Below, piece after piece: positions 6,705 to 22,067 of a stretch of DNA of 24,493 nt. The stretch spans positions 1 to 24,493 of the IMG/VR virus record IMGVR_UViG_3300044701_004588. One strand, 5' to 3'. The first letter of the stretch is position 1, and the number at the start of each line of letters is the position of its first letter. The position numbers were made by a program, and so were the translations under genes. Under the pieces are notes generated by a model. The model was given only the letters and a program-made list of their open reading frames with translations, was not told the DNA's origin and searched no databases. The stretch comes from a virus.

Positions 6705-7097
6705 ATGGCTTCTGCTCTCAGCGCTCTCGCTAACGCAACCGCGACATTCACCGTTGCAGGGACGGGGGTGGTGACGGATCCCACGACTGGCAACGTGACC
6801 CCGGCAACGGCAACTGTGTCTGTGCCCTTGTTCCTTAAGGCGGAGCGGGTGCGGGGTACGGCATTTCCGGGGGTGGAGATGACGGAAACGACGTTTGATG
6901 GCTACGCCCTTGAGGCGCTGGATGAGCGGATTGTTGTTGGGACCGAAGGGACGGTGGTGTTTGGGGGTGCGGATGCGGTGGAGTGTGAGGTGACCGCGTT
7001 GCGCCTGCCCTATGGAAAGACTGGATTGCTCGGGGAGACGCTCGGCGCTGCACTTGGGGAGCGGGTGCAGCTGGTGTCAAGAGAGCAGGTTGGCTGA
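6705..7097 (+). CDS. Putative head closure / head-tail connector protein, inverted relative to the operon
   Basis: This 130-aa protein is rich in Val, Thr and Gly and probably folds as a small beta barrel ('TATVSVPLFLKAERVRGT', 'LDERIVVGTEGTVVF'). It is followed, with a TGATG overlap, by an HK97 gp10-like gene, and head closure genes commonly sit just before that gene. Role and family are inferred from size, fold type and this neighbour. I chose ATG 6705. An in-frame ATG at 6666 would add 13 residues but would overlap the AGGAGG of the divergent tape measure gene. No strong ribosome binding site is visible. The gene is on the plus strand while the surrounding tail genes are on the minus strand, so it cannot share their transcript. 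Confidence 0.6.
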   Translation: MASALSALANATATFTVAGTGVVTDPTTGNVTPATATVSVPLFLKAERVRGTAFPGVEMTETTFDGYALEALDERIVVGTEGTVVFGGADAVECEVTALRLPYGKTGLLGETLGAALGERVQLVSREQVG

Positions 7098-7510
7098 TGG
7101 CGCGGGTTACGCAGTGGAACGCCGATAAGCTGTTGCGCCGTGTGCCGCTGATCCTCACTAACTACGGCATTAAGGTCACGCCCCTGCTGCAGGAGTCGAT
7201 AAAAGCAGAGGTGTATGAGTGGCCGACGACCACACGCAGGAAGAATGGTGAGACAGTCGGCAGCCCACGCAACATCGTAGATACGGGTGAGCTGTTGCGT
7301 TCTCAGTCCGCTCCAAAGGTGCAGGACAATCGCCTGACGATCACTTGGGGGGCGCCGTACTCAGGAGAAGTTCTGCGCGGTGGGTTTTTGGTGGGCACGC
7401 TGCGGAATGCGTACATCGCGCCGGGGCGAGATTGGATTACGCCGGTGCTTAGGGCGGAAGAGCCGATGCGGTTTTTTGTGAAGGAGTGGCGAAAGATTGG
7501 GGGCGCATAA
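7097..7510 (+). CDS. HK97 gp10-like tail completion / head-tail joining protein
   Basis: The protein has 137 aa, the usual length for this family. The central segment 'SPRNIVDTGELLRSQ' matches the conserved 'I-V-D-T-G-x-L-x-x-S' signature of HK97 gp10-like and minor capsid or tail-completion proteins. A C-terminal helix follows a Gly/Pro loop ('APGRDWITPVL'). Such proteins cap the tail tube and join it to the head closure ring. The ATG overlaps the stop of the preceding gene, so the two form a two-gene plus-strand unit. Downstream is a hairpin with a T-run on the opposite strand only. The family call is fairly secure; the exact assembly step is inferred. Confidence 0.75.
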   Translation: MARVTQWNADKLLRRVPLILTNYGIKVTPLLQESIKAEVYEWPTTTRRKNGETVGSPRNIVDTGELLRSQSAPKVQDNRLTITWGAPYSGEVLRGGFLVGTLRNAYIAPGRDWITPVLRAEEPMRFFVKEWRKIGGA

Positions 7511-8061: not shown

Positions 8062-8072
8062 CTAAGTTGCCG
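8062..8072 (-). promoter_or_regulatory. CGGCAACTTAG element before the tail tube gene
   Basis: Exact 11-bp copy ending 23 nt before ATG 8038. Its last ten bases also encode the end of the sigma-like gene (Ala-Thr-stop). Two other exact copies do not end a gene, so the conservation is probably at the DNA or RNA level. Confidence 0.6.
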
Positions 8073-8619
8073 CTTCGCCTTGCTCTAATAACTCCCACGG
8101 TGTGGCGCGGGGGCAGATGTGGAGGTCGAAGCCGCGGATGTCGTGGTCCGTGGGGCTGGTGGCCACAAGCGCCAGTTTCAACTGCTCCTCCGTGATCTCA
8201 AGCGCTATCAACACCTCCTCACGGGTGCTGCCGCGGTCCAGCATCTTGCGGGCGAGCTGGCCGTTGCGGCGTACGGCGCCGGGGGCCTTCACCAGCCAGT
8301 TGTGGTCGCGGATGAAGTGCAACACGTCGCCTTCAGCGAAGACGGTGAGAAGCGTGGAAAAGGTTCCCTTGGCGGGCTGCCAGGCGCGACACGTCTTGAT
8401 AAAGGCTTGGTCGATGCACGAAAACACATCCTCTGCTGAGACAAAGGGGTATTTCCTGCATAACTTGCGGCCCATGAGGCGCAAAAGGCCCTGGTGCTCG
8501 CGGTACATCGCGGCGATGCGGCGCTGCTCGTCGCGGGTGAGTGGGGTCGCCAAGTAGCCGGTGCGGGGGCGGTGGCGCGCACCGGTGGGGGCGGATGACT
8601 GGGTGGCAACCTGAGCCAT
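8062..8619 (-). CDS. Sigma-70-like transcription factor lacking region 4
   Basis: The protein has 185 aa. Residues about 41-107 fit sigma region 2: 'HQGLLRLMGRKL', then an 'AEDVFSCIDQAFIKTCRAW' helix, then 'GTFSTLLTVFAEGDVLHFIR', comparable with the conserved 'D-L-x-Q-E-G-x-x-G-L' and 'G-T-F-S-T-Y-A-x-x-x-I-R' segments. Residues about 108-152 fit region 3, including 'STREEVLIALEITEEQLKLA'. Only about 30 residues follow, so no region 4 (-35 recognition) is present. Small phage late sigma factors such as T4 gp55 also lack a normal region 4. It would direct host RNA polymerase to phage promoters. It lies between the head-tail adaptor and tail tube genes, an uncommon place for a sigma gene. Family assignment is from motif reading only. 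Confidence 0.75.
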   Translation of the reverse strand: MAQVATQSSAPTGARHRPRTGYLATPLTRDEQRRIAAMYREHQGLLRLMGRKLCRKYPFVSAEDVFSCIDQAFIKTCRAWQPAKGTFSTLLTVFAEGDVLHFIRDHNWLVKAPGAVRRNGQLARKMLDRGSTREEVLIALEITEEQLKLALVATSPTDHDIRGFDLHICPRATPWELLEQGEAAT

Positions 8620-9221: not shown

Positions 9222-9250
9222 CGCTTGGGCGCTTTATCCGAGCTTTCCGG

Positions 9251-9261
9251 GGGCAACTTCG
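9251..9261 (+). promoter_or_regulatory. Plus-strand copy of the CGGCAACTTAG element
   Basis: The plus strand reads GGGCAACTTCG (9 of 11). It ends 20 nt before ATG 9282, which is on the same strand. This supports 9282 as the start and shows that the element follows gene direction. Confidence 0.5.
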
Positions 9262-9281
9262 GTTGTAATCGTACCCGCAAC

Positions 9282-9554
9282 ATGAGCGAACAAGACAACG
9301 CAGCCGGCGCTAGGGCGCCCAAGAAGAAAGTGGCGAAGAAAGAAGAGGTGGGTGTTGCTGGGGTGCGGAAGTGGGAAGATGTTGTGCCCAAGATTCGGGA
9401 GATGAAGGAATCGGGGGCGACGGTGCCGGAGATTGCAGAGAAGCTGGAGCTCAGCTATGTGCTGGTGAATCAGGTGATGCTGCAGAGCTACAAGATGTCC
9501 GTGGACACCATTGGGGTGTTTGAACGGCAAGAGCGGATGCGGTTGGGGCTGTGA
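9282..9554 (+). CDS. Small HTH-containing protein on the opposite strand of the head operon
   Basis: The 90-aa protein has a Lys-rich N-terminus ('APKKKVAKKEE') and a probable helix-turn-helix at about residues 47-72 ('GATVPEIAEKLELSYVLVNQ'). The frame is open upstream to 9225. I prefer ATG 9282 because the GGGCAACTTCG element lies 20 nt before it and the extra residues look like translated spacer. It overlaps the next gene by TGATG. It could be a regulator of late transcription or a small connector protein. No family is recognised. Confidence 0.68.
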   Translation: MSEQDNAAGARAPKKKVAKKEEVGVAGVRKWEDVVPKIREMKESGATVPEIAEKLELSYVLVNQVMLQSYKMSVDTIGVFERQERMRLGL

Positions 9555-9754
9555 TGCAGAGCGCACGGGACTTCAATACTGAAGTTCGTGCGCCTTTCAA
9601 TGGGCCGATTTCGCACATCCTTAAGGCGATTGATGCGCACACTGCCCTCTACTTCAAAGGGGGTGGTGTGTGGCACCTTGAGCAGGCGCAGGTGCTGCGG
9701 GGGTATGTGCGGGGGCTGAAGGAATGGATTAAGGCTGAGGAGCAAAGGCATTAA
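9554..9754 (+). CDS. Small hypothetical protein, second gene of the plus-strand pair
   Basis: This 66-aa protein is probably helical ('HILKAIDAHTALYFKGG', 'LEQAQVLRGYVRGLKEWI'). The frame also opens with GTG at 9551, but the ATG at 9554 overlaps the stop of the HTH gene and is preferred. Short proteins with a C-terminal 'L-R-x-Y-V-R-x-L-K-x-W-I' helix occur near capsid genes of some phages as I recall, without known function. Its stop codon abuts the A-run that is the T-run of the oppositely directed capsid terminator. Confidence 0.65.
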   Translation: MQSARDFNTEVRAPFNGPISHILKAIDAHTALYFKGGGVWHLEQAQVLRGYVRGLKEWIKAEEQRH

Positions 9755-10901: not shown

Positions 10902-11630
10902 TTACCCGCGGCCGGCCTCGGCCTTTAGGGCGCGGGCGAGCTCGGGGTTGTCCGCTTCAAGGCGCAGCGCTTCGGTGAGGTTGAAGCTTTCGGCCTTGTA
11001 CGGGTTGCGGGTGCCGGCAGCGGTGCTGGCGCTCGCGGTGGCTCCCATGCCTCGGGCTGTAACAGCCGCAAAGTGGTGGTCCCAGCCACTGCCCGCTGAC
11101 TTCAGGGTCTGCAGGTGGGTTTCGAGGGGGTGCTCGATGCCGTTGACGACAACGACGGGGTCGCCGTTGGAGTCGCGAAGCTGGGGTGAGAGAAGGCCGT
11201 AAAGCTGCTCGGGCGCTAAGGCGTTCGCTGCACTGATGGCGTTGATTGCACTCGCGCGGAGACGTTCGGCGCTAATGGCGCTTTCTTTCTCGTTGAGCTG
11301 CGCTTCGAGCTCACTGATGCGCTGCACCAGTCGTGCGTTCTCTGCGGTGGCGTCGTTCCACAACTGCTTGTACTCACCGCTGGATTCCAGGGTTTGTTGT
11401 GTTGTGGACTTGAGCTTTGCCTCTAACTCGCGGAGTCGTTTTTCACTCTCGCCGAGACGCTCGTTGAGCGTTCGGTTGGCTTCGCCTTTGCTCAAATTGT
11501 CCTTCTGGACAAGTTCAAGCTTCGTGCGGAGAGCGGTCAGTTCGTCGGCGGTTGGGGCACTGGCGGGTTGCTGAGTCACGGACTCAACTGACTCCTCCAC
11601 GGGAGGAGTCCCCACGACTTGCTCAGGCAT
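10902..11630 (-). CDS. Capsid scaffolding protein
   Basis: The 242-aa protein has an acidic, Pro/Gln-rich start followed by a long coiled coil at about residues 28-125 ('ELTALRTKLELVQKDNLSKG', 'LGESEKRLRELEAKLKSTTQ', 'LVQRISELEAQLNEKESAIS'). The C-terminal third ends in a basic and acidic helix ('LRLEADNPELARALKAEAG'). Size, composition and position directly before the capsid gene are those of phage scaffolds, which direct shell assembly and then leave. An exact CGGCAACTTAG element ends 21 nt before the ATG and may drive scaffold and capsid together, since no terminator is seen between them. Confidence 0.85.
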   Translation of the reverse strand: MPEQVVGTPPVEESVESVTQQPASAPTADELTALRTKLELVQKDNLSKGEANRTLNERLGESEKRLRELEAKLKSTTQQTLESSGEYKQLWNDATAENARLVQRISELEAQLNEKESAISAERLRASAINAISAANALAPEQLYGLLSPQLRDSNGDPVVVVNGIEHPLETHLQTLKSAGSGWDHHFAAVTARGMGATASASTAAGTRNPYKAESFNLTEALRLEADNPELARALKAEAGRG

Positions 11631-14472: not shown

Positions 14473-15831
14473 TTATTTGAACTGGAAGTTGCTGCCGCCT
14501 GTTTGATAGCGGCGGAGTCCCGCAAGGCTGTAGATCACGTAGCCCATTGCGTCGACGGGGCCGGATTTGTCGTCGAGGCCCGTGCCGCTTTTGTCGGGGC
14601 TGCCCTTCTGGTTGTAAGTCTGCGTCTCTAACGAACGGATGAGGTACTTGCAGCTGGGGTGGACGCGGAGGCGGTTGTTGAGTAGGAGCATCTGGACGGC
14701 GTTGACGCGGTCCTCGACGAGGGGGTTGGCGTTTTGGACCTTGATGCGGAGGCCGTGCCGCTTGAGGATGGCGAGGTCGCTCTCGCTCGCGTTGGTTGTG
14801 GTGCGGTGTTTGCTGGCGGCGTCAGGCACCACCGTGAGGAGGCCGCGGTCGATGTGGTCGCCGTATTGCTCTTTCAGGCGGGTGGCAATCGTGGGCGTGT
14901 CTTTGACGTGGAACTCGGTGACGAAGTGGAATACGTCGCCGCGACGGATGCAGATTTCGATGAAGCAGGTGCCGACGTTGAAGTCGCAACCTGCGTAGAT
15001 CATGTCGTCGGGGCGGATTTCTTCGTCGCTCCAATGCACGTCGCGGTCGAAGTAGCTGTAGACCGTTGTTTTGTCGAGGGCGGTGAACTGGCCTTGGAGG
15101 TAGGCGGCGAGGAGCTGGGGTGGGTAGTTGGCGTAGAGGGAGTCGACGAAGCCTGGGGGGAGGTGGGGGTTGTCGAGGGTTTTGGCGCGGATGAGGTGAC
15201 GGTCGGGGCCGGCCTTCTGGTCGAACGTGTTCCACATGAAGCCGTAGCCCTCAGGCGTGGAGGCCAAGGCGAACTGGGGGTTGGTGCCGCCGCGCAGTCG
15301 CGCAAGGATCATCTCGGCGCCCTTTTGCGCTAACTCGAACTTGCTGGTGTCGATTTCGTCGGCGAGCGCAAATGCGAGGTTGGTGCCGCGGATGCGATTC
15401 ACTGCTTCCAACGTCCGGCACAAGATCGTGCATTGGCCGTGGGGCAGGTGCAGGGTGTACTCCGGCTGGGGGCTGGCGCGGTAGTCGTACTCGATGTTGA
15501 AGCGGTCCAAAAACTCGTCGAAGCTGCGGACCCATACGTCGAGCACCATCTGGAACGTGGGCTCGAACACGGCGCCGACCTTGCCCGGGTTGTCCATCGC
15601 CAAAAAAACAGCCTTGGCGCAGAGGGCGACCGTCTTGCCCGCGCCGAAGCCGGCGCATAAGCCCAGGAGCAGGTGGTCGATGTCGTCGACGAAGGCGCGC
15701 TGGTGCGGCAACAGCGACTCGTAAATGGCGTCGCGGAGCGCGGTGTAGGTCGTGCTGCAACGGGTGTCCACCGCGATGGGCGCGTCGAGGCACTTTCCGC
15801 CAGGAACAATGCCAAGAATCCCCACGAACAC
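14473..15831 (-). CDS. terL: Terminase large subunit
   Basis: The 452-aa protein is the packaging motor ATPase and headful or cos nuclease. Walker A is at residues 61-67 (GFGAGKT), Walker B at 152-159 (LAFALADE) and the coupling motif at about 189-194 ('LASTPEG'). The RNase H-like nuclease domain has candidate metal ligands D283 ('GCDFNVG'), D337 ('VVPDAAS') and D427 ('GPVDAMGY'). The length is typical. The start is GTG in this frame. GTG 15825 or the GTG at 15771 are possible, since GCAGG lies directly against the first. Upstream are TATA-like boxes and a CTAAATAGGTAG element. The small subunit candidate is 4.1 kb away, beyond the plus-strand cassette. Confidence 0.94.
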   Translation of the reverse strand: MFVGILGIVPGGKCLDAPIAVDTRCSTTYTALRDAIYESLLPHQRAFVDDIDHLLLGLCAGFGAGKTVALCAKAVFLAMDNPGKVGAVFEPTFQMVLDVWVRSFDEFLDRFNIEYDYRASPQPEYTLHLPHGQCTILCRTLEAVNRIRGTNLAFALADEIDTSKFELAQKGAEMILARLRGGTNPQFALASTPEGYGFMWNTFDQKAGPDRHLIRAKTLDNPHLPPGFVDSLYANYPPQLLAAYLQGQFTALDKTTVYSYFDRDVHWSDEEIRPDDMIYAGCDFNVGTCFIEICIRRGDVFHFVTEFHVKDTPTIATRLKEQYGDHIDRGLLTVVPDAASKHRTTTNASESDLAILKRHGLRIKVQNANPLVEDRVNAVQMLLLNNRLRVHPSCKYLIRSLETQTYNQKGSPDKSGTGLDDKSGPVDAMGYVIYSLAGLRRYQTGGSNFQFK

Positions 15832-15930
15832 CTGCGCTCAGTTCTATACATAGGGTACGAACCGGTGCGGTGGGCTGGGAGCGGGGGTGGGGGAGGGCTA
15901 TATAGGCCGACCTGGAGCATTAAATGAGCG

Positions 15931-15942
15931 CTACCTATTTAG
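15931..15942 (-). promoter_or_regulatory. CTAAATAGGTAG element facing terL
   Basis: 12-bp element on the minus strand, 99 nt before the terL GTG. It matches the plus-strand copy at 16199-16210 and the minus-strand copy at 23678-23667 at 11 of 12 positions each. The CTAAATA core resembles late promoter cores of T4-like cyanophages as I recall them. Confidence 0.4.
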
Positions 15943-16162
15943 AGGTGGCGAATTTTGGGGCTGCAAACGGGAGGTAGGGGGTGGGTGAGCCCCCCTGCGC
16001 GCCCTTTGTGTGGGGGTGGGGTGCCTGGGCTAGAGGGCGCCGCCAGTGGCCAGCGCTGCGGTGCGGAATCGCCGGGATCCGTTGCGGCGCAGCGTGTCCG
16101 GTCCTGCGTAACTGCCACTGCAGCAGGTACGCTGGACAGAGTGTTAAGAGTTATCAACGTTT

Positions 16163-16177
16163 AGGGTGCTGCACCCT
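16163..16177. promoter_or_regulatory. 15-bp palindrome, possible operator
   Basis: AGGGTGC-T-GCACCCT is a perfect inverted repeat in the divergent control region, 143 bp before the first cassette gene. It is too tight for a good RNA hairpin and fits a dimeric regulator site, for example for one of the RHH or HTH proteins in the window. That link is inference. Confidence 0.4.
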
Positions 16178-16198
16178 TCTGCGATAGATCTGCCAACC

Positions 16199-16210
16199 CT
16201 CAATAGGTAG
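16199..16210 (+). promoter_or_regulatory. CTCAATAGGTAG element facing the plus-strand cassette
   Basis: 11 of 12 matches to the element before terL, here on the plus strand and 110 nt before ATG 16321. It mirrors the arrangement on the terL side. Confidence 0.38.
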
Positions 16211-16320
16211 GATTTGATCGAGGCCAGAAAACTTTCGAGTCGCGCAGCATCCTGCGCCGCGAAAAATTTCAGCCCCGCGATTCAGCCGGGCGCCTCACCC
16301 TTCCCACTGCACCCCAGACA

Positions 16321-16503
16321 ATGACCAACACCGAACTGCGCGCTCAGGCCGGCCTGTTCTTCACCGCTTGCCTGTTGTTTACCGGCGCCCTGTTGCTCGC
16401 CGCCGGTTTCGCACAAGCGGACGCCCGCGCCGCACGATTCGAGCGCTGCGTTAACGCTGGCGGACTGGCCGGCCAGTGCGAGCGCGCCGCCTACGGGTTC
16501 TGA
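16321..16503 (+). CDS. Small membrane or exported protein, first gene of the cassette
   Basis: The 60-aa protein has one hydrophobic segment at about residues 11-32 ('LFFTACLLFTGALLLAAGFA'), followed by 'QADARAARFERCVNAGG' with two cysteines. This fits either a signal peptide with cleavage near 'AQA' or a single membrane anchor. No ribosome binding site is clear. The next gene starts 2 bp after the stop. It is small enough for a superinfection exclusion or lysis-accessory role, but nothing in the sequence shows this. Confidence 0.6.
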   Translation: MTNTELRAQAGLFFTACLLFTGALLLAAGFAQADARAARFERCVNAGGLAGQCERAAYGF

Positions 16504-16505
16504 TC

Positions 16506-16712
16506 GTGCGACCCGTAACGCTCCTGGCCTGCGCCCTCGCCGGTGCAGCCCTCGCCGTTAGCGCCTGCGCCCTCGCTGTCACTACAGCCGGTGCAGCCGC
16601 CTGCGCCCTCGCCCATCGCCGGTGCGCCGCCGAAGCCGCAGCCGCTGGCCTGAGCGCCGCCCACTGCGCAACGCGCCCCGCGCCCGCAATCTCCACCGCT
16701 ACCGCGTACTGA
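16506..16712 (+). CDS. Small Ala/Cys-rich hydrophobic protein
   Basis: The 68-aa protein begins with GTG 16506, 2 bp after the previous stop. It is extremely Ala-rich, with a hydrophobic first half ('LLACALAGAALAVSACALAV') and five cysteines. A signal peptide or membrane protein is likely if it is expressed. The frame is open upstream to an ATG at 16476, inside the previous gene. Low complexity lowers confidence. Its support is close packing between two better genes, with the next ATG only 3 bp after its stop. Confidence 0.45.
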   Translation: MRPVTLLACALAGAALAVSACALAVTTAGAAACALAHRRCAAEAAAAGLSAAHCATRPAPAISTATAY

Positions 16713-16715
16713 ACC

Positions 16716-17198
16716 ATGGCCACACGTTCCGCCATTGCGCTGCAGCGCTCCGATGGGAGCCTGCGCGCCGTCTACTGCCATTGGGACGGCTATCCCTCCC
16801 ATCACCTGCCGCTGCTGCAGGCCCACCACAGCAGCGCCCGCGCTGCTGCAGCGCTAATCCGCCCTGGTGACATTTCCTGCCTGCGCACGCGCACAACGTG
16901 GCAAAGCGGCGCAACCATCCGCGACGCCCACGGCGAGCCGGTGACCGATCCCGCCGGCTACTGGCGCCACCAAGGCGACCGCGAGGCGCAGCCCCTCTAT
17001 TACCACGAGCGCGGCGAGCAAGACGTGGCGCCCCGGCGCTTTGCCGACCTGCCCGCGCTGATGGCGTGGGCGGATGGCTGCTGCTGTGAACACGTCTACA
17101 TCTACCGGCCCCGCCACGGCTGGGAACACCGCGAGATCAGCGCCATCAGCACCGCCGCGCCCTCGCCGATGCCCGGCTGTGATCCCGCGCAGTGGTAA
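16716..17198 (+). CDS. Conserved phage hypothetical with 'YCHWDGYPSHH' motif
   Basis: The 160-aa protein starts 'MATRSAIALQRSDGSLRAVY' and continues into 'CHWDGYPSHH' (residues about 21-30), then 'LIRPGDISCLRTRT'. I recognise this pattern from many phage and plasmid hypothetical proteins with the same start and a 'Y-C-H-W-D-G-Y' core. Function is not known. A C-terminal part has 'LMAWADGCCCEHVYIYRP', a small segment that reads like an accessory domain. It is the best-conserved gene of the cassette start and confirms that the plus strand is coding here. Confidence 0.82.
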   Translation: MATRSAIALQRSDGSLRAVYCHWDGYPSHHLPLLQAHHSSARAAAALIRPGDISCLRTRTTWQSGATIRDAHGEPVTDPAGYWRHQGDREAQPLYYHERGEQDVAPRRFADLPALMAWADGCCCEHVYIYRPRHGWEHREISAISTAAPSPMPGCDPAQW

Positions 17199-17248
17199 CG
17201 CCCTGCGCCCTGTCCCTTTATCGCCGGTGCCACGCGCCGGCTCACACA

Positions 17249-17887
17249 ATGCGCAAATCGATCACCGTTCAAACCGCCGCTGGGCCGCGCGATATCGCCG
17301 CGGTCTGGGTTGGCGACAATCTCGCCGTGCATCGGCCGCCCATGCGCGGCGGCACGAAACCGGCGCCGAAACAATGGGCCATCACCCACACGGCCAGCGG
17401 CCTTTCTATGGGTGCGCCGTTGTGCGCCCGTAAGGAAACCGCCCTCGCCCTGGCGCGCTTATGGGATGCCGCCGCCGGAACTATCGACCCGCGCGATGCC
17501 CGCGGCTGGCGTTATTTGCGCAGTTGGCAACTTGACGTTGCCGCGGCCGAGAATCGCCGGATCGCACCCCTAGAGGGTCCGGTTCTGCCCGACAATCACG
17601 GCCCGCAAGACGTAGCGGCTGCCATCGCCGCCGCGCTGGACTCTGCCTACGCGCCCGCCGGTGATCAGGCCGCCGATCAATTCCCGGCCCACGAAACCGT
17701 GGCGGCTGATTTGCTGCGCACCGGTGCCGATGGCGTGGAAATGTTCTGGCGCGGCCGATGGTGGCCGGTGCCGACATTTGGGGAAGTGGAAGCGTGGGCG
17801 CTGGATTCCCTCGCTGAAACGCCGGACGGGCGCACGGTTGAACCGGACGCGCCCGACAGCTGGACTCGGCTCCTGGGGGTGTGCTGA
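17249..17887 (+). CDS. Hypothetical protein with Trp-rich C-terminal part
   Basis: The 212-aa protein starts at ATG 17249 ('MRKSITVQTAAGPRDIAAVW'). The frame is open to 17192, but the extra residues overlap the previous gene and look non-coding. The first half has small beta segments and an Ala/Leu helix ('ETALALARLWDAAAG'). The second half has 'GADGVEMFWRGRWWPVPTFG' and 'VEAWALDSLAE'. No catalytic motif is recognised. It overlaps the following frame near 17881-17887 and is part of the tightly packed cassette. Confidence 0.65.
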   Translation: MRKSITVQTAAGPRDIAAVWVGDNLAVHRPPMRGGTKPAPKQWAITHTASGLSMGAPLCARKETALALARLWDAAAGTIDPRDARGWRYLRSWQLDVAAAENRRIAPLEGPVLPDNHGPQDVAAAIAAALDSAYAPAGDQAADQFPAHETVAADLLRTGADGVEMFWRGRWWPVPTFGEVEAWALDSLAETPDGRTVEPDAPDSWTRLLGVC

Positions 17888-17889
17888 TC

Positions 17890-18627
17890 ATGCCCGCACA
17901 ATCCCTTACCGCGTCCGGTGCGCCCTCCCGCACCGCAGGGCGCCTGCACTTCCATCTCACACCCTCCAGCGCTAACGCCAAAACCGGCCCAATCCCTGTC
18001 AGCACGTCAAGCGCTGAAACATGCCCGAGCGCCGCGGTCTGCCCTTTCAAAGGAAACGGCTGCTACGCGGAACGGGGACCGCTTGCCCTCCACTGGCGCG
18101 CTGTCACAGAAGGCCGCCGCGGTGTTCCGTGGGCGGAATTCCTGCATGCAATCCGCGCCCTGCCCGCCCGGCAGTTGTGGCGACACAATCAGGCGGGCGA
18201 CCTATGGCGCCCCGGAACTGCCGCCGGGCGCGCCGCCCTGGCGCAACTGACAGAAGCGAACCGGGGCCGGCGCGGCTTCACTTACAGCCACCACAAGCGC
18301 ACCCCCGCCACCGTGCAAGCTTTCAAGGCCGCCACGGCCCACGGGTTCACCGTTAACGCCAGTTGTCACAGCGAGGCGGAAGCTGACGCAGCCATCGCCG
18401 ATGGCCTGCGCGCTGTGTTTGTTGTGCCCGCGGATGATCAGCGCACCGCGTGGGAAACCGCCGGCGGTAATCGCGCTGTCGTTTGCCCGGCGCAACGGTT
18501 CGATCAAATGACGTGCGCGCGCTGTCAGTTGTGCGCCGCGCGGCCCTCACACGTGGCCATCGTGTTCCTCGCCCATGGCACCGGACGCAAGGCCGCTGAG
18601 CTCGCCCTGCAGGGGGTGCAGCCATGA
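17890..18627 (+). CDS. Cysteine-rich protein of unknown function (DUF7227-like)
   Basis: The 245-aa protein starts at ATG 17890; a GTG at 17881 is less likely. Eight cysteines form two groups: C45, C51 and C58 ('TCPSAAVCPFKGNGCYAE'), and C199, C209, C212 and C215 ('TCARCQLCAARP'); C159 lies between. Other strong segments are 'GPLALHWRAV', 'LPARQLWRHNQAGDLW', 'ANRGRRGFTYSHH' and 'GFTVNASCHSEAEADAAI'. I associate this pattern with a phage and plasmid family (DUF7227) of unknown function. The three-cysteine groups suggest iron-sulfur or zinc binding. The repeated alpha/beta pattern with a strand after each helix resembles a barrel. The stop overlaps the next ATG. Confidence 0.78.
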   Translation: MPAQSLTASGAPSRTAGRLHFHLTPSSANAKTGPIPVSTSSAETCPSAAVCPFKGNGCYAERGPLALHWRAVTEGRRGVPWAEFLHAIRALPARQLWRHNQAGDLWRPGTAAGRAALAQLTEANRGRRGFTYSHHKRTPATVQAFKAATAHGFTVNASCHSEAEADAAIADGLRAVFVVPADDQRTAWETAGGNRAVVCPAQRFDQMTCARCQLCAARPSHVAIVFLAHGTGRKAAELALQGVQP

Positions 18628-18779
18628 TCGGCCCACAATCCGCCCGGATCACAATTGTGATCCCGGCCAGTGTTGCTGAGCGATTAAAGGTTCAGGCGGA
18701 AGCGCAGGGGCGGAGCATGTCGAACCTGGCAGCCCGCCTGATCGCCCTTGCATTTGAGCAGGATCGGCGCGATGGCTGA
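18624..18779 (+). CDS. Ribbon-helix-helix DNA-binding protein, 51 aa
   Basis: A short gene with an ATGA overlap to the previous gene and an 8-bp overlap with the next. The product 'SARITIVIPASVAERLKVQA' followed by 'EAQGRSMSNLAARLIALAFE' is a textbook MetJ/Arc-type fold: one strand ('RITIVIP'), helix A, a 'G-R-S-M-S-N-L' turn and helix B. It probably binds DNA as a dimer and may control the cassette. Tandem or palindromic sites nearby (16163-16177, 19562-19580) are possible targets, by inference only. Confidence 0.78.
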   Translation: MIGPQSARITIVIPASVAERLKVQAEAQGRSMSNLAARLIALAFEQDRRDG

Positions 18780-19194
18780 GCGCGCCACTGACGCGCAACG
18801 GGCCGCGCGTGAACGCGACGCGCTGGAGCTTCTCAGCTCTGGCGCCGGTTCCGCGTTTGCCGCGGCCACCCTCGCCGAACGGTACGGGGTGAGCCTGCGC
18901 CAGGCGCGCCGGTACGTTGCGGCCGCATCGTTCGAATTGTGCGATGCCGCCACGCCCGCCGAATTGGATCGGCAGGCGATGCTCTCCCTCCATCGCTTGG
19001 ATCTCATCGCGGGCCGTGCCATGGCTGCTGGGGATGAGAGCCTCGCGGTGCGCGCTACGCGGGCGCACGCCGCAGCCCTGGCGCAGTTCCGGCGCGCAAT
19101 CTCCGCGCCCGTAACGCGCTTCAGACTGCCCACAACGCAGGCGCCGCCCGGGGCGCAGGAGCCGGTGCAGGTGCCCGCGGACTGCCCCTTTTGA
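18772..19194 (+). CDS. HTH protein resembling a small terminase subunit
   Basis: The 140-aa protein starts at ATG 18772, overlapping the RHH gene. An upstream in-frame codon at 18748 is unlikely. Residues about 15-55 form an HTH ('AATLAERYGVSLRQARRYVA'), followed by helices ('AMLSLHRLDLIAGRAMAAGD', 'AVRATRAHAAALAQFRRAIS') and a Pro-rich tail. Many phage small terminases have this layout, with an N-terminal 'Y-G-V-S-x-R-Q-A-x-R-Y' recognition helix and a helical oligomerisation core. A second protein of similar layout is encoded on the minus strand at 19932-20351. Which one packages DNA cannot be told. A regulator is the alternative. A terminator-like hairpin follows 4 bp after the stop. Confidence 0.65.
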   Translation: MAERATDAQRAARERDALELLSSGAGSAFAAATLAERYGVSLRQARRYVAAASFELCDAATPAELDRQAMLSLHRLDLIAGRAMAAGDESLAVRATRAHAAALAQFRRAISAPVTRFRLPTTQAPPGAQEPVQVPADCPF

Positions 19195-19198
19195 TCAC

Positions 19199-19220
19199 GC
19201 GCCCCGAAACCACGGGGCGC
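19199..19220 (+). terminator. Hairpin after the HTH/TerS-like gene
   Basis: GCGCCCCG and CGGGGCGC form an 8-bp stem with a 6-nt loop, followed by TCTTA. The T-run is weak, so partial termination is likely. Confidence 0.55.
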
Positions 19221-19245
19221 TCTTACCCTTCCAACATTTCACGCC

Positions 19246-19473
19246 ATGAAAATCTCTGGAGATGCTTCCCTGTCGCCTGACGCCCTCATCGGCGCAGTGC
19301 TGACAAACAACAACGGCGCTCAGTTCTATCTGCTGGGGCTGGAGGTTAATCTCGCTGCCCACGAAATCAGCGCCCTGCTGCGCCCCTGCGAGGGTGGCGG
19401 AACCGTGGGAGTCAGCTGGGCATCCCTCGCCGATTGGGAGATACAGCTGCAATCGGCCCACTACATGGAATAG
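19246..19473 (+). CDS. Small hypothetical protein, last gene of the cassette
   Basis: The 75-aa protein has an even composition and a plausible alpha/beta pattern ('DALIGAVLTNNNGAQFYLLG', then 'LAAHEISALLRPCEGGG', then 'VSWASLADWEIQLQS'). No family is recognised. It is separated from the previous gene by a hairpin and followed by a strong terminator. Codon use is like that of its neighbours. The ATG has no clear ribosome binding site. Confidence 0.6.
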   Translation: MKISGDASLSPDALIGAVLTNNNGAQFYLLGLEVNLAAHEISALLRPCEGGGTVGVSWASLADWEIQLQSAHYME

Positions 19474-19500
19474 AGCCCGCGGCGCCATTCCGCCCCACGC

Positions 19501-19532
19501 GCCCCGGCTGCACCCTGCAGCTGGGGCCTTTT
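19501..19532 (+). terminator. Terminator at the end of the plus-strand cassette
   Basis: GCCCC and GCTGCA pair with TGCAGC and GGGGC (one G-T position, CCC loop), followed by CTTTT. It lies 28 bp after the last cassette stop and closes the unit. Confidence 0.75.
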
Positions 19533-19857
19533 GCTGCGCCGGCGCGCCGGGCGCGGCTGTTTTGTGTCCTAATTGTGTCCGCGGCGCGCAGGGCGCAGGG
19601 GCGCGTCAGGGCGCCCACAAGCGGCCGGGCGGCAGGGTGCGCCTGTCACAGCAGGGCGCGGAATCGCAGGGCGTGGGGAGCCGGGGCCAGACACTAGGCG
19701 GCGCCCGGCGCCTTGGGCGTGATAACGATTCTCATGCTCAGCAGCGGCCTCGCCCGCAGGCCGGGAGAAAATCCGGGCGCCGGGGTCATCCACGGGCGCC
19801 CTTTGTCCCACTGCAGAGACGACAGAACTATAGGCGACCGCTACGCGAAAACAACGC
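19533..19857. other. Non-coding GC-rich spacer between the convergent units
   Basis: No convincing gene on either strand. It contains TTGTGTCC twice with an 11-bp period (19562-19580), five loosely spaced CAGGG(C/T)G units at 19589-19673, an inverted repeat CGGCCT/AGGCCG near 19748-19766, and GCGCCCTTTGT (19796-19806), which also occurs at 15999-16009. Confidence 0.55.
19562..19580 (+). repeat. Tandem TTGTGTCC pair with 11-bp period
   Basis: Two exact 8-bp copies separated by TAA, so equivalent bases are one helical turn apart. This spacing suits cooperative binding of two protein dimers. The binding protein is unknown. Confidence 0.6.
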
Positions 19858-19914
19858 CTAGTGAATGCGTTTTCGCAGTGAATGCGTTTTTGCGCCTTAG
19901 GCGCAGTGAATGCG
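19858..19914. repeat. Iterated AGTGAATGCG repeats downstream of the small terminase gene
   Basis: Three copies start at 19860, 19877 and 19905. Two are extended to the exact 13-mer CGCAGTGAATGCG, which has CGCA/TGCG ends. Between copies 2 and 3 is a TGCGCC-TTA-GGCGCA hairpin. A fourth copy (GCGCAGTGAATGC) lies inside the small terminase gene at 20246-20258. Confidence 0.75.
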
Positions 19915-19931
19915 ATTTGGCGCCGCAGGCG

Positions 19932-20351
19932 TCAGATGCCCTTGGCTTTGACGAGCTGGAGCAGGTCCGCCTGCAGTTTCATGGCGCCGATGGCGTTGGC
20001 GCCCATGTTGCGCTCGATGCTCATCTGAATGACGGTTTCGAGCTTCTCGATCATCTCGCTCACCTTTTCTGCGCGATCCATCACGTTGATGTCGCGGATC
20101 ATTTGCTGGCGGGCGGCGGCCATCCGGTGCTCAGCAGTGCGGGTCGCTATCCCCCACCTGTCTGCGCAGCGCTGCCGGATCTGGTTCGGGCGGTAACCCT
20201 CGCTGAGCCAGTCCTGCACAATGCGGACTTGCTCTGCGATTTCGAGCGCAGTGAATGCCTGGCGGCGACGGGGCACGTCCTCCGGGTTGGCTGGGGCGGG
20301 GTTGCCAAAATCCGCTAGCTGGGCGTCGGTGCTCTCGTCGGCCATCGGCAT
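19932..20351 (-). CDS. Putative terminase small subunit
   Basis: The 139-aa protein has an HTH at about residues 37-72 ('EIAEQVRIVQDWLSEGYRPN', then 'CADRWGIATRTAEHRMAAAR') and a helical C-terminal core ('AEKVSEMIEKLETVIQMSIE', then 'GAMKLQADLLQLVKAKG'). This is the layout of cyanophage-type small terminases that recognise the packaging site and oligomerise. It lies on the same strand as the large terminase but 4.1 kb upstream of it. The start is ATG 20351; ATG 20345 (MADES) is also possible. An exact CGGCAACTTAG element ends 27 nt before 20351. The stop is followed by the AGTGAATGCG repeats. Confidence 0.72.
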   Translation of the reverse strand: MPMADESTDAQLADFGNPAPANPEDVPRRRQAFTALEIAEQVRIVQDWLSEGYRPNQIRQRCADRWGIATRTAEHRMAAARQQMIRDINVMDRAEKVSEMIEKLETVIQMSIERNMGANAIGAMKLQADLLQLVKAKGI

Positions 20352-21085: not shown

Positions 21086-21345
21086 GGGGCGCAGTGGGTG
21101 ATTTCGGTGGGCGTAAATTCGCCACTTGGGTGGTGGTGCCAGACCTGAATGGTCGCGTCGAGCTGGTCGGTGCGGTGCTCCTCAACCAAGACGCGCAACC
21201 AGTTGCCAAGCCACTTGCCGGTGCGGATGCCCCGGACCGTGAAGACAAGGTCGGGCTGGGCTGGGATGCCGTGCGCAGGAATGAATTGCAAAACCGCGGT
21301 TGTGGTATTTCGCGGTGGGAGGTAGTGGTCCTCGTGGGCGCTCAT
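21082..21345 (-). CDS. 87-aa hypothetical protein downstream of the exonuclease
   Basis: The ATG overlaps the exonuclease stop (ATGA) and the stop overlaps the next ATG, so it is part of a coupled run. It has beta segments and Trp/His residues ('IRTGKWLGNWLRVLVEEHRT', 'IQVWHHHPSGEF'). It could be an accessory of the exonuclease or a small DNA-metabolism protein; this is from position only. Confidence 0.68.
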   Translation of the reverse strand: MSAHEDHYLPPRNTTTAVLQFIPAHGIPAQPDLVFTVRGIRTGKWLGNWLRVLVEEHRTDQLDATIQVWHHHPSGEFTPTEITHCAP

Positions 21346-22067
21346 TGCTCAAAACCGTGTTGGGCCGTGTAGTACGTGTTGGCGCGGGAAATGAACTTGC
21401 GGCCGTAGTCGCGCAGTTCCTCGCCCGTTAGCTCCCAGATGTCGGGGAAGTCGCCGTGTGGACGTGCGATCACCAACAACGCACGCTCCGGTTTGACGCC
21501 GTAGACGTAGTCAATCGCTGTCGCGTAGGCGCCGAGCTGACAGCAGTAGTCCTCCACCAGCGCTGCGTCGCGCTTGTTCTTCGACGTTTTCCAATCCAGC
21601 AGTGTCAGCAGTTCGCTGGCGTCCTCGGGGGTGAGGTCGTCGCGCTGCGTGTAGTTGCTGTAGCCCAGGGCGTCGAATTGGCCGGCGAAGCGGGTGGGGT
21701 GGTACACCGCACACTCCTGCGCCACGAGCTGGACCCAGTGCTGCTCCAAGAACGGGCGGATGTTGCGCCAGTACGCCCCAAACGCAAAGTGCTTGGGGTC
21801 GGGAAGCGGGTCGCCCGCTTGGTGCGCCAGCAGCCAGTTCTCGATTTGCTTGTGGGTCCAGGTGCCGCGGGCCTTGGCCGCATCGCTGATCGCAGCCGCG
21901 TCAGGGCGCTTGAGCCATTGCTCAAGGCGCTTTTTGCTCGTGCCTGTCTTGCCCAGGATGCTGGTGACGGAGTCGAGCCGGCCCACCGGGCTGGTGTATC
22001 CGCTCTTGTCAGGTAGACGTGTGACAACGCCCCGCGGCTTTGGGAGTGACGTGAGGCGGTCTGGCAT
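21342..22067 (-). CDS. RecB/MGME1-like PD-(D/E)XK exonuclease
   Basis: The 241-aa protein carries the RecB-nuclease motif set: 'ARGTWTHKQIENWL' (residues 66-79), E118 ('AQECAVY'), 'FAGQFDAL' with D132, 'LLDWKTSK' with D158 and K160, and 'QLGAYATAI' with Q177 and Y181. Length and order match MGME1-like single-strand exonucleases of cyanophages and other phages. It would process DNA ends in replication or recombination, together with the ssDNA-binding-like protein upstream. The ATG at 22067 lies 3 bp after the stop of the 67-aa gene. All key residues are present, so it is probably active. Confidence 0.88.
   Translation of the reverse strand: MPDRLTSLPKPRGVVTRLPDKSGYTSPVGRLDSVTSILGKTGTSKKRLEQWLKRPDAAAISDAAKARGTWTHKQIENWLLAHQAGDPLPDPKHFAFGAYWRNIRPFLEQHWVQLVAQECAVYHPTRFAGQFDALGYSNYTQRDDLTPEDASELLTLLDWKTSKNKRDAALVEDYCCQLGAYATAIDYVYGVKPERALLVIARPHGDFPDIWELTGEELRDYGRKFISRANTYYTAQHGFEQ

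What the first reader, a model, noticed from the sequence alone, without database searches (positions are those of the whole stretch)
15832..19931. Opposite-strand eight-gene cassette separating small and large terminase genes
The terminase genes are usually adjacent. Here a plus-strand unit from 16321 to 19473, closed by a terminator, lies between them. It brings an RHH protein, a TerS-like HTH protein, a cysteine-rich protein and exported or membrane-like small proteins. This looks like a self-contained accessory module (moron, defence or anti-defence island, or relic of a satellite). The many start-stop overlaps inside it indicate one operon.
Basis: partly seen in the sequence, partly recalled or inferred. 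Interest (0 to 1): 0.7.

Follow-up and report, generated by a model that had tools for sequence, protein, structure and literature searches.

The report
Swappable anti-defence operon beside phage terminase
Between two DNA-packaging genes of an uncultured, cyanophage-like virus lies an opposite-strand operon that relatives also have, with interchangeable cargo genes (an anti-restriction gene in some) and always a copy derived from the small packaging protein, so it looks like a fixed slot for swappable host-takeover genes rather than a chance insertion.

Summary
Observation confirmed: eight plus-strand ORFs (16321-19473), closed by a strong hairpin-T terminator, lie between minus-strand TerL (14473-15831) and TerS (19932-20351). 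It is not an insertion that split the terminase: every relative examined has the plus-strand unit, and none is empty. In 15 of 26 loci it lies between TerL and TerS; in 11 TerS sits next to TerL and the unit follows it. So TerS and the unit change sides, at least twice. The interior is exchangeable: {phrog_1987, o212, DUF7227} as here, or {ArdA antirestriction and/or a very acidic ~280-aa protein}; DUF7227 never with the others in 40 loci. The distant cyanophage S-2L carries its Z-genome genes (PurZ/MazZ/DatZ) in the comparable place. The constant part is the 'HTH' gene: a TerS paralogue (profile E 2e-8), followed in most loci by a conserved 11-bp-spaced direct repeat, and found in phages with unrelated TerL. 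DUF7227 is modelled as a barrel with cysteines placed as in radical-SAM enzymes (best structural hits viperin and QueE, weak). Best reading: a fixed anti-defence/host-takeover slot with swappable cargo and a terminase-derived DNA-binding protein with its own site. Function is inferred, not shown.

The parts
14473..15831 (-). TerL, large terminase, first gene of the late block
   Evidence: Terminase_6N 2.8e-9, phrog_2 3.7e-33
15832..16320 (.). divergent intergenic region between TerL and the cassette; long stretches identical in 5 aligned sequences; presumed promoter region of both
   Evidence: alignment A4; no sigma-70 match found
16321..16503 (+). o60, small protein with hydrophobic N-terminus
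   Evidence: dN/dS 0.14-0.42; no family at E below 0.01
16509..16712 (+). o67, small Ala/Cys-rich protein, GTG start
   Evidence: dN/dS 0.18 vs L045, 0.69 vs L043
16716..17198 (+). o160, phrog_1987 family, also in cyanophage genomes
   Evidence: 5.9e-25; 44 phage records, mostly Synechococcus/Prochlorococcus phages
17249..17887 (+). o212, unknown family found with DUF7227
   Evidence: in 11 of 40 loci, the same 11 as close DUF7227 homologues
17890..18627 (+). DUF7227 (PF23872), cysteine-rich, radical-SAM-like predicted barrel
   Evidence: 8.1e-76; AF2 pLDDT 91.3; VIA Z 6.1-6.7 to viperin, QueE, EpeE, SuiB
18624..18779 (+). RHH, ribbon-helix-helix DNA-binding protein, allele swapped relative to close relatives
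   Evidence: RHH_5 2.4e-12; dS 0.75-0.81 versus 0.13 and 0.30 in the flanking genes
18772..19194 (+). HTH, TerS paralogue, constant last conserved gene of the unit
   Evidence: hhalign to TerS family E 2.1e-8; AF2: HTH plus two long helices
19246..19473 (+). o75, small acidic protein, accessory, found in 2 of 40 loci
   Evidence: dN/dS 0.16; 2 of 40 loci; gaps in L041, L042, L044, L048
19501..19527 (+). intrinsic terminator of the unit
   Evidence: hairpin retained with changed stem in relatives
19562..19580 (+). direct repeat DR: TTGTGTCC-TAA-TTGTGTCC, 11-base period, candidate HTH site
   Evidence: 13-14 of 14 positions in 26 of 37 HTH relatives
19719..19733 (.). 15-base 7-1-7 palindrome (Fur-box-like by recall)
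19862..19914 (+). three TGAATGCG iterons
   Evidence: clusters of 3 or more TGAATG within 1.2 kb of HTH in 35 of 36 loci
19932..20351 (-). TerS, small terminase, last gene of the exonuclease block
   Evidence: family profile hits the MED4-184 gene upstream of TerL, 5.8e-16
21342..22067 (-). Exo, exonuclease; marks the other border of the slot
   Evidence: phrog_298 8.5e-29

Best explanation
The cassette is a standing transcription unit of a group of uncultured, cyanophage-like siphoviruses, in a fixed slot between the late block (TerL onward) and the exonuclease block. It carries exchangeable host-takeover/anti-defence cargo. SHOWN: the unit is conserved in position; its interior swaps between {o160, o212, DUF7227} and {ArdA-like and/or acidic P280}; it ends in a TerS paralogue (HTH), a terminator and, in most loci, a conserved direct repeat; TerS has changed side relative to it. 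INFERRED: the cargo is expressed early and blocks or evades host restriction-type defences. ArdA does so by DNA mimicry in known cases; DUF7227 would do it as a radical-SAM-like enzyme acting on a nucleotide or on DNA. RHH would repress the operon. HTH would be a small-terminase protein recruited to bind the direct repeat just behind its own gene, marking a packaging or regulatory boundary between the converging blocks.
For: Slot conserved and TerS moves: 15 loci TerL-unit-TerS, 11 loci TerL-TerS-unit, 0 otherwise, of 26; at least 2 switches forced by well-supported branches of the TerL tree. Cargo: 12 of 40 loci DUF7227/GP88-like, 10 ArdA-like, 11 P280, none with DUF7227 and either of the others, 14 with none of the three. 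ArdA PF07275 5.7e-20; the five ArdA-like and P280 proteins tested have pI 4.1-4.3 and net charge -27 to -37, as DNA mimics do. S-2L (portal 37%) has PurZ/MazZ/DatZ between its nuclease block and TerL; MED4-184 has a DNA methylase and a queuine tRNA-ribosyltransferase just upstream of TerS-TerL. DUF7227 is PSSP7_001, the first annotated gene of phage P-SSP7, ahead of RNA polymerase, and precedes RNA polymerase in S-SRP01 and P-SSP2. HTH is TerS-related (MED4-184 TerS hit by the HTH profile at 1.9e-7). DR quality follows HTH identity (rho 0.45, p 0.006), not TerS (0.09); with TerL identity it is negative (-0.50). HTH is 61-79% identical in phages whose TerL is only 25-27% identical.
Against: No gene in the window's own cargo has a tested anti-defence function; the case is positional. 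14 of 40 loci carry none of the three cargo families (some cut by contig ends). DUF7227's structural matches have Z below 8, the level the tool calls possibly common arrangement, and Foldseek gave nothing at E up to 0.001. DR correlations ignore phylogeny, and in the 25 loci with TerL the HTH correlation alone is not significant (rho 0.24, p 0.25). DR scores only 9-11 in 6 of 37 relatives. The direct repeat lies behind the operon and no second copy was found near its promoter in the window, which argues against simple autorepression by HTH. The host is inferred from relatives only.
Confidence: 0.55

Rival explanations
1. HTH is a second working small terminase, and the terminator-DR-iteron stretch (19501-19914) is the packaging site (pac or cos); the phage packages with two TerS-type proteins or swaps between them.
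For: HTH and TerS are homologous and HTH has the TerS layout in the model; 38 of 40 loci carry both, and the 2 exceptions are near contig ends; conserved DNA elements lie beside the HTH gene.
Against: HTH is conserved across phages with unrelated TerL, unlike a TerL partner; it is on the other strand and in another unit; structural matches to small terminases are weak (E 1.4 or more, Z 5-6, some with rmsd above 11).
Confidence: 0.2
2. HTH is an Aca-like autorepressor that marks an anti-defence operon, as aca genes mark acr loci.
For: Constant regulator-type gene at the end of an operon with variable cargo, found in otherwise different phages; anti-restriction genes in the operon. Aca proteins repress acr loci and acr loci cluster with ArdA (PMC7648647, passages seen).
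Against: The only conserved motif found that follows HTH is downstream of the operon, and no further copy appears in the promoter region of the window; RHH is the likelier repressor.
Confidence: 0.15
3. Core early-gene operon: ordinary replication or host-shutoff genes of the group with no anti-defence role.
For: Conserved position in all 26 loci; DUF7227 sits among early genes of podoviruses.
Against: Interior genes are replaced wholesale between phages with 95-100% identical TerS and TerL (window versus L044 and L045), and ArdA is among the replacements.
Confidence: 0.2
4. Recent insertion or satellite relic that split an adjacent terminase pair.
For: TerS and TerL are adjacent in 11 of 26 relatives and in MED4-184.
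Against: Those 11 relatives also have the unit; no empty site; no integrase or replication gene.
Confidence: 0.03

Closest known systems
acr-aca and anti-restriction gene clusters of mobile elements (PMC7648647, passages seen)
   Same: variable anti-defence cargo beside a more conserved DNA-binding gene; ArdA takes part
   Different: the marker gene is TerS-derived and its conserved motif is behind, not in front of, the operon; no known acr found
ArdA antirestriction proteins (PF07275)
   Same: ArdA occupies the same slot in several relatives
   Different: the window itself has no ArdA; it has DUF7227, o212 and o160 instead
Phage small terminase TerS (e.g. phage G20c/P74-26)
   Same: HTH plus two-helix layout, and sequence homology of HTH to the group's own TerS
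   Different: opposite strand, separate unit, not tied to the TerL lineage
DUF7227 / GP88 phage families (PF23872, PF17338)
   Same: clear member of DUF7227 (255 bits, cut-off 27)
   Different: GP88 score is just under its cut-off (24.3 versus 24.4)
Radical-SAM nucleotide enzymes (viperin, QueE)
   Same: barrel model with three Cys in the loop after an early strand; top nine structural rows are radical SAM
   Different: CX5CX6C here (CX3CX6C in most aligned family members) instead of CX3CX2C; Z below 8
Cyanophage S-2L Z-genome cluster (PurZ, MazZ, DatZ)
   Same: lies between the nuclease block and TerL in a phage with a related portal
   Different: same strand as TerL, other genes; S-2L TerL only 24% identical over part

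Membership tests
Small terminase (TerS), for HTH 18772-19194 | Sequence homology to a TerS | tested here: met
   hhalign HTH versus TerS family: prob 95.3, E 2.1e-8; HTH profile hits MED4-184 TerS-position gene 1.9e-7
Small terminase (TerS), for HTH 18772-19194 | N-terminal HTH and helical oligomerisation hairpin matching solved TerS | tested here: inconclusive
   elements present in the AF2 model, pLDDT 80, but matches to G20c/P74-26 TerS are weak
Small terminase (TerS), for HTH 18772-19194 | Encoded beside TerL in the same unit | tested here: not met
   opposite strand in the window and in the relatives mapped
Small terminase (TerS), for HTH 18772-19194 | Binds a packaging site and stimulates TerL | not testable with these tools
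   needs protein
Radical SAM superfamily, for DUF7227 | Canonical CX3CX2C cluster motif | tested here: not met
   C45-X5-C51-X6-C58; most aligned members CX3CX6C
Radical SAM superfamily, for DUF7227 | Radical-SAM barrel fold | tested here: inconclusive
   top nine VIA rows radical SAM, Z 6.1-6.7, rmsd 4.0-4.6, but below 8 and close to other barrels at 5.8
DUF7227 (PF23872) | Score above the curated cut-off | tested here: met
   255 versus 27 bits
ArdA-type antirestriction locus | ArdA gene present | tested here: not met
   no PF07275 in the window's eight ORFs; ArdA-like gene in 10 of 40 loci, not in the window
acr-aca locus | Regulator motif at the operon promoter | tested here: not met
   DR found only in the HTH 3' flank of the window; RHH sites not tested
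acr-aca locus | Known anti-CRISPR gene | tested here: inconclusive
   no Pfam, PHROG or NCBIfam name for o60, o67, o212, o75, but o60, o67, o75 were not run in NCBIfam
Phage satellite | Integrase and own replication genes | tested here: not met
   none among the eight ORFs
Insertion into an adjacent terminase pair | Empty site in relatives | tested here: not met
   unit present in 26 of 26 loci

The most novel reading that the evidence does not exclude
A small-terminase paralogue has been recruited, with its own direct-repeat site, as the constant core of a mobile anti-defence slot that passes between phages with unrelated terminases, and DUF7227 is a phage radical-SAM-like enzyme that changes a nucleotide or DNA base to evade host restriction, filling the place that ArdA fills in relatives and the Z-genome genes fill in S-2L.
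Probability: 0.2. Interest if true: 0.8.

Novelty: new variant of a known kind. Interest (0 to 1): 0.55.

Why it matters
If right, the HTH gene and its repeat are a marker for finding counter-defence genes in uncultured cyanophage-like genomes, where few are known to me, and DUF7227, a family with 186 matching phage records and at least 598 matching stretches in IMG/VR, gets a first testable role. It also shows a small terminase gene duplicated and put to another use, and a gene (TerS) that repeatedly leaves its partner.

Tried and rejected
Operator search in the divergent promoter region of 25 loci (15 used as representatives) gave only GC-rich coding-like words. Folding of the stretch behind TerS was no better than shuffles, and the terminator region only z -1.3 because the whole stretch is GC-rich. 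DUF7227, HTH and TerS profiles gave no convincing solved relative by sequence. Foldseek alone gave no significant fold for HTH or DUF7227. TerS, HTH and the L061 TerS have no tblastn match in the phage collection; one genome-contig scan for HTH found no relative, a pattern-limited search. NCBIfam named none of the cargo tested. Paper searches: 'DUF7227' 0 papers; phage + radical SAM + GP88 1 paper, listing only; second small terminase 1 paper, listing only; ArdA/cyanophage listing only; anti-defence/Aca listing; cyanosiphovirus listing only. Only passages of PMC7648647 were read.

An artefact removed: the ArdA2 seed carried an out-of-frame N-terminal extension over o67 and so 'hit' window 16622-16870 and o160; the recount with the trimmed family is. 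The iterons were first thought to belong to HTH; L203, which has no close HTH and no direct repeat by the patterns used, still has them, so they are not tied to HTH. Of the 33 new loci from the iteron scan (35 stretches), most others are unrelated, many with spacings divisible by three. The TGAATG word is strand-biased throughout (window 9 versus 1), which weakens its meaning outside the clusters.
Full report
WHAT THE WINDOW IS. The window is a whole IMG/VR record of 24,493 bases, linear. It is a GC-rich siphovirus-type genome part: portal, scaffold, major head protein, head-tail adaptor, major tail protein, terminase and an exonuclease block. Its nearest isolated relatives are cyanophages: TerL 42-45% identical to KBS-S-2A, S-H1 and MED4-184, portal 37% to S-2L. 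The host is inferred to be a picocyanobacterium from these relatives only; HTH was found in none of the GTDB contigs scanned.

THE OBSERVATION. The eight plus-strand ORFs are real. Against L043 seven have dN/dS 0.09-0.42; o67 is 0.69 there but 0.18 against L045. A 12-pair terminator closes the unit at 19501-19527, and a hairpin recurs in the same place with changed stem bases in several relatives. TerS is recognised by its family: its profile hits the 107-aa gene directly upstream of TerL in MED4-184 at 5.8e-16.

NOT AN INSERTION. Seventeen TerL relatives were fetched from IMG/VR, 20 and then 39 loci with HTH, and 80 with DUF7227. For the gene maps I used 40 loci: the window, 37 with HTH, and L061 and L063 from the DUF7227 search. 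L046, L047 and other re-cuts of contigs already taken were left out. In the 26 of 40 where TerL, TerS and HTH are all readable, the order is TerL-unit-TerS in 15 and TerL-TerS-unit in 11, with no other case. Because most of these loci were chosen by HTH, the fairer test for an empty site is the TerL-chosen set: of its 17 loci the seven that reach from a whole TerS to TerL (L005, L006, L009, L011, L012, L014, L015) all hold the unit with HTH; the other ten are cut before they could show it, although three of those records (L002, L003 and, for DUF7227, L004) show parts of it. L203, found by its iterons, has TerL-TerS adjacent and plus-strand ORFs, but no close HTH. On the TerL tree the two orders need 3 changes, of which well-supported branches force 2; on the TerS tree the picture is the same. 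So TerS and the unit have exchanged sides more than once, and I found no empty site.

THE CARGO SWAPS. Alignment against close relatives shows sharp mosaics: L044 and L045 match the window well up to about o67 and again from RHH/HTH on, while about 16700-18600 is replaced. The replacement in L044 is an ArdA antirestriction protein (PF07275, 5.7e-20). ArdA-like genes occur in 10 of 40 loci, a second very acidic ~280-aa family (P280) in 11, DUF7227/GP88 in 12, and DUF7227 is never with either of the others; 14 loci have none of the three. The HMM for ArdA matches 4 of 8 members at E up to 0.1, so several of the more distant ones rest on iterated similarity. The five ArdA-like and P280 proteins tested have pI 4.1-4.3 and net charge -27 to -37, as DNA mimics do (established knowledge). 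In L059 and L060 ArdA and P280 lie on the other strand while HTH keeps its direction. RHH is swapped on its own: dS 0.75-0.81 to L042/L043, against 0.13 in DUF7227 and 0.30 in HTH beside it.

THE SLOT IN ISOLATED PHAGES. In S-2L the Z-genome genes PurZ, MazZ and DatZ lie between the PD-(D/E)XK nuclease block and TerL. In MED4-184 a DNA methylase and a queuine tRNA-ribosyltransferase lie just upstream of TerS and TerL. Both are on the TerL strand, and only the portal and a piece of the head gene are clearly related to S-2L, its TerL 24% over part, so this is a parallel, not an identity.

DUF7227. The protein is a clear member of PF23872 (255 bits, cut-off 27). The AF2 model has pLDDT 91.3. The nine best VIA rows are all radical-SAM enzymes (viperin, EpeE, QueE, SuiB; Z 6.1-6.7), but dehydroquinases follow at 5.8 and all are below 8, and Foldseek alone listed mixed barrels. 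Cysteines C45, C51 and C58 lie in the loop after the early strand 37-40, where radical-SAM clusters sit (placement recalled), and C199, C209, C212, C215 could hold a second cluster. The motif is not the canonical one, so I do not file it in the superfamily. In podoviruses it is an early-region gene by position: PSSP7_001, the first annotated gene of P-SSP7, and ahead of RNA polymerase in P-SSP2 and S-SRP01. No paper in the library names DUF7227.

HTH AND ITS DNA. HTH and TerS are homologous families (hhalign E 2.1e-8), and HTH forms one side of a branch in the joint tree (support 94). HTH was found in 39 and TerS in 39 of 40 loci; the two gaps (L168, L153) are near contig ends. HTH is 61-79% identical to the window's in phages whose TerL is 25-27% identical, so it travels apart from TerL. 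Behind HTH and its terminator stands TTRTGTCC-N3-TTRTGTCC. Within 400 bases of HTH, 26 of 37 relatives score 13-14 of 14 and 31 of 37 score at least 12; elsewhere in the same loci the best is 10-12, mean about 9. The score follows HTH identity (rho 0.45, p 0.006, n 37), not TerS (0.09, n 36), and runs against TerL (-0.50, n 25); in those 25 the HTH correlation is 0.24 and not significant. These tests ignore kinship. The two most different HTH proteins (L061, L063) have no repeat. I read this as HTH and the repeat belonging together; binding is not shown. Further on, TGAATG clusters stand in 35 of 36 loci, but also in L203 without a close HTH, so they seem to belong to the end of the exonuclease block.

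HOW IT MIGHT WORK. Shown: conserved slot, exchangeable cargo, TerS paralogue with a conserved site, TerS changing sides. Inferred: early expression, anti-restriction or related host takeover by the cargo, RHH as repressor, HTH binding the repeat as a packaging or transcription boundary. The function of o160, o212, o60, o67 and o75 is open.

VERDICT. It is a new variant of the known anti-defence cluster, made interesting by the terminase-derived marker gene and by DUF7227.

Noticed in passing
window 19862-19914: Three TGAATGCG iterons behind TerS; clusters of 3-6 recur in 35 of 36 loci and in L203; the word is strongly strand-biased in the genomes.
   Followed up: partly
window 19719-19733: 15-base 7-1-7 palindrome between converging genes, conserved in close relatives and, by eye, three times in L203; Fur-box-like by recall.
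   Followed up: no
window 7097-7510, 9225-9554, 9551-9754: Single plus-strand genes inside the minus-strand late block, kept on the opposite strand in relatives.
   Followed up: no
window 8062-8619 and L139 3703-4716: A sigma-factor-like gene in the late block (phrog_351) and, by eye only, a second one in the longer relative G002.
   Followed up: no
L003, L007, L008, L010: Several contigs end 58-394 bases upstream of the TerL match, inside or beside the cassette, perhaps because strain variation there breaks assembly.
   Followed up: no
L203 (reverse orientation 11217-11564): A divergent small HTH protein of TerS-like layout, seen by eye, also stands in the plus-strand unit of a phage that lacks close HTH.
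   Followed up: partly
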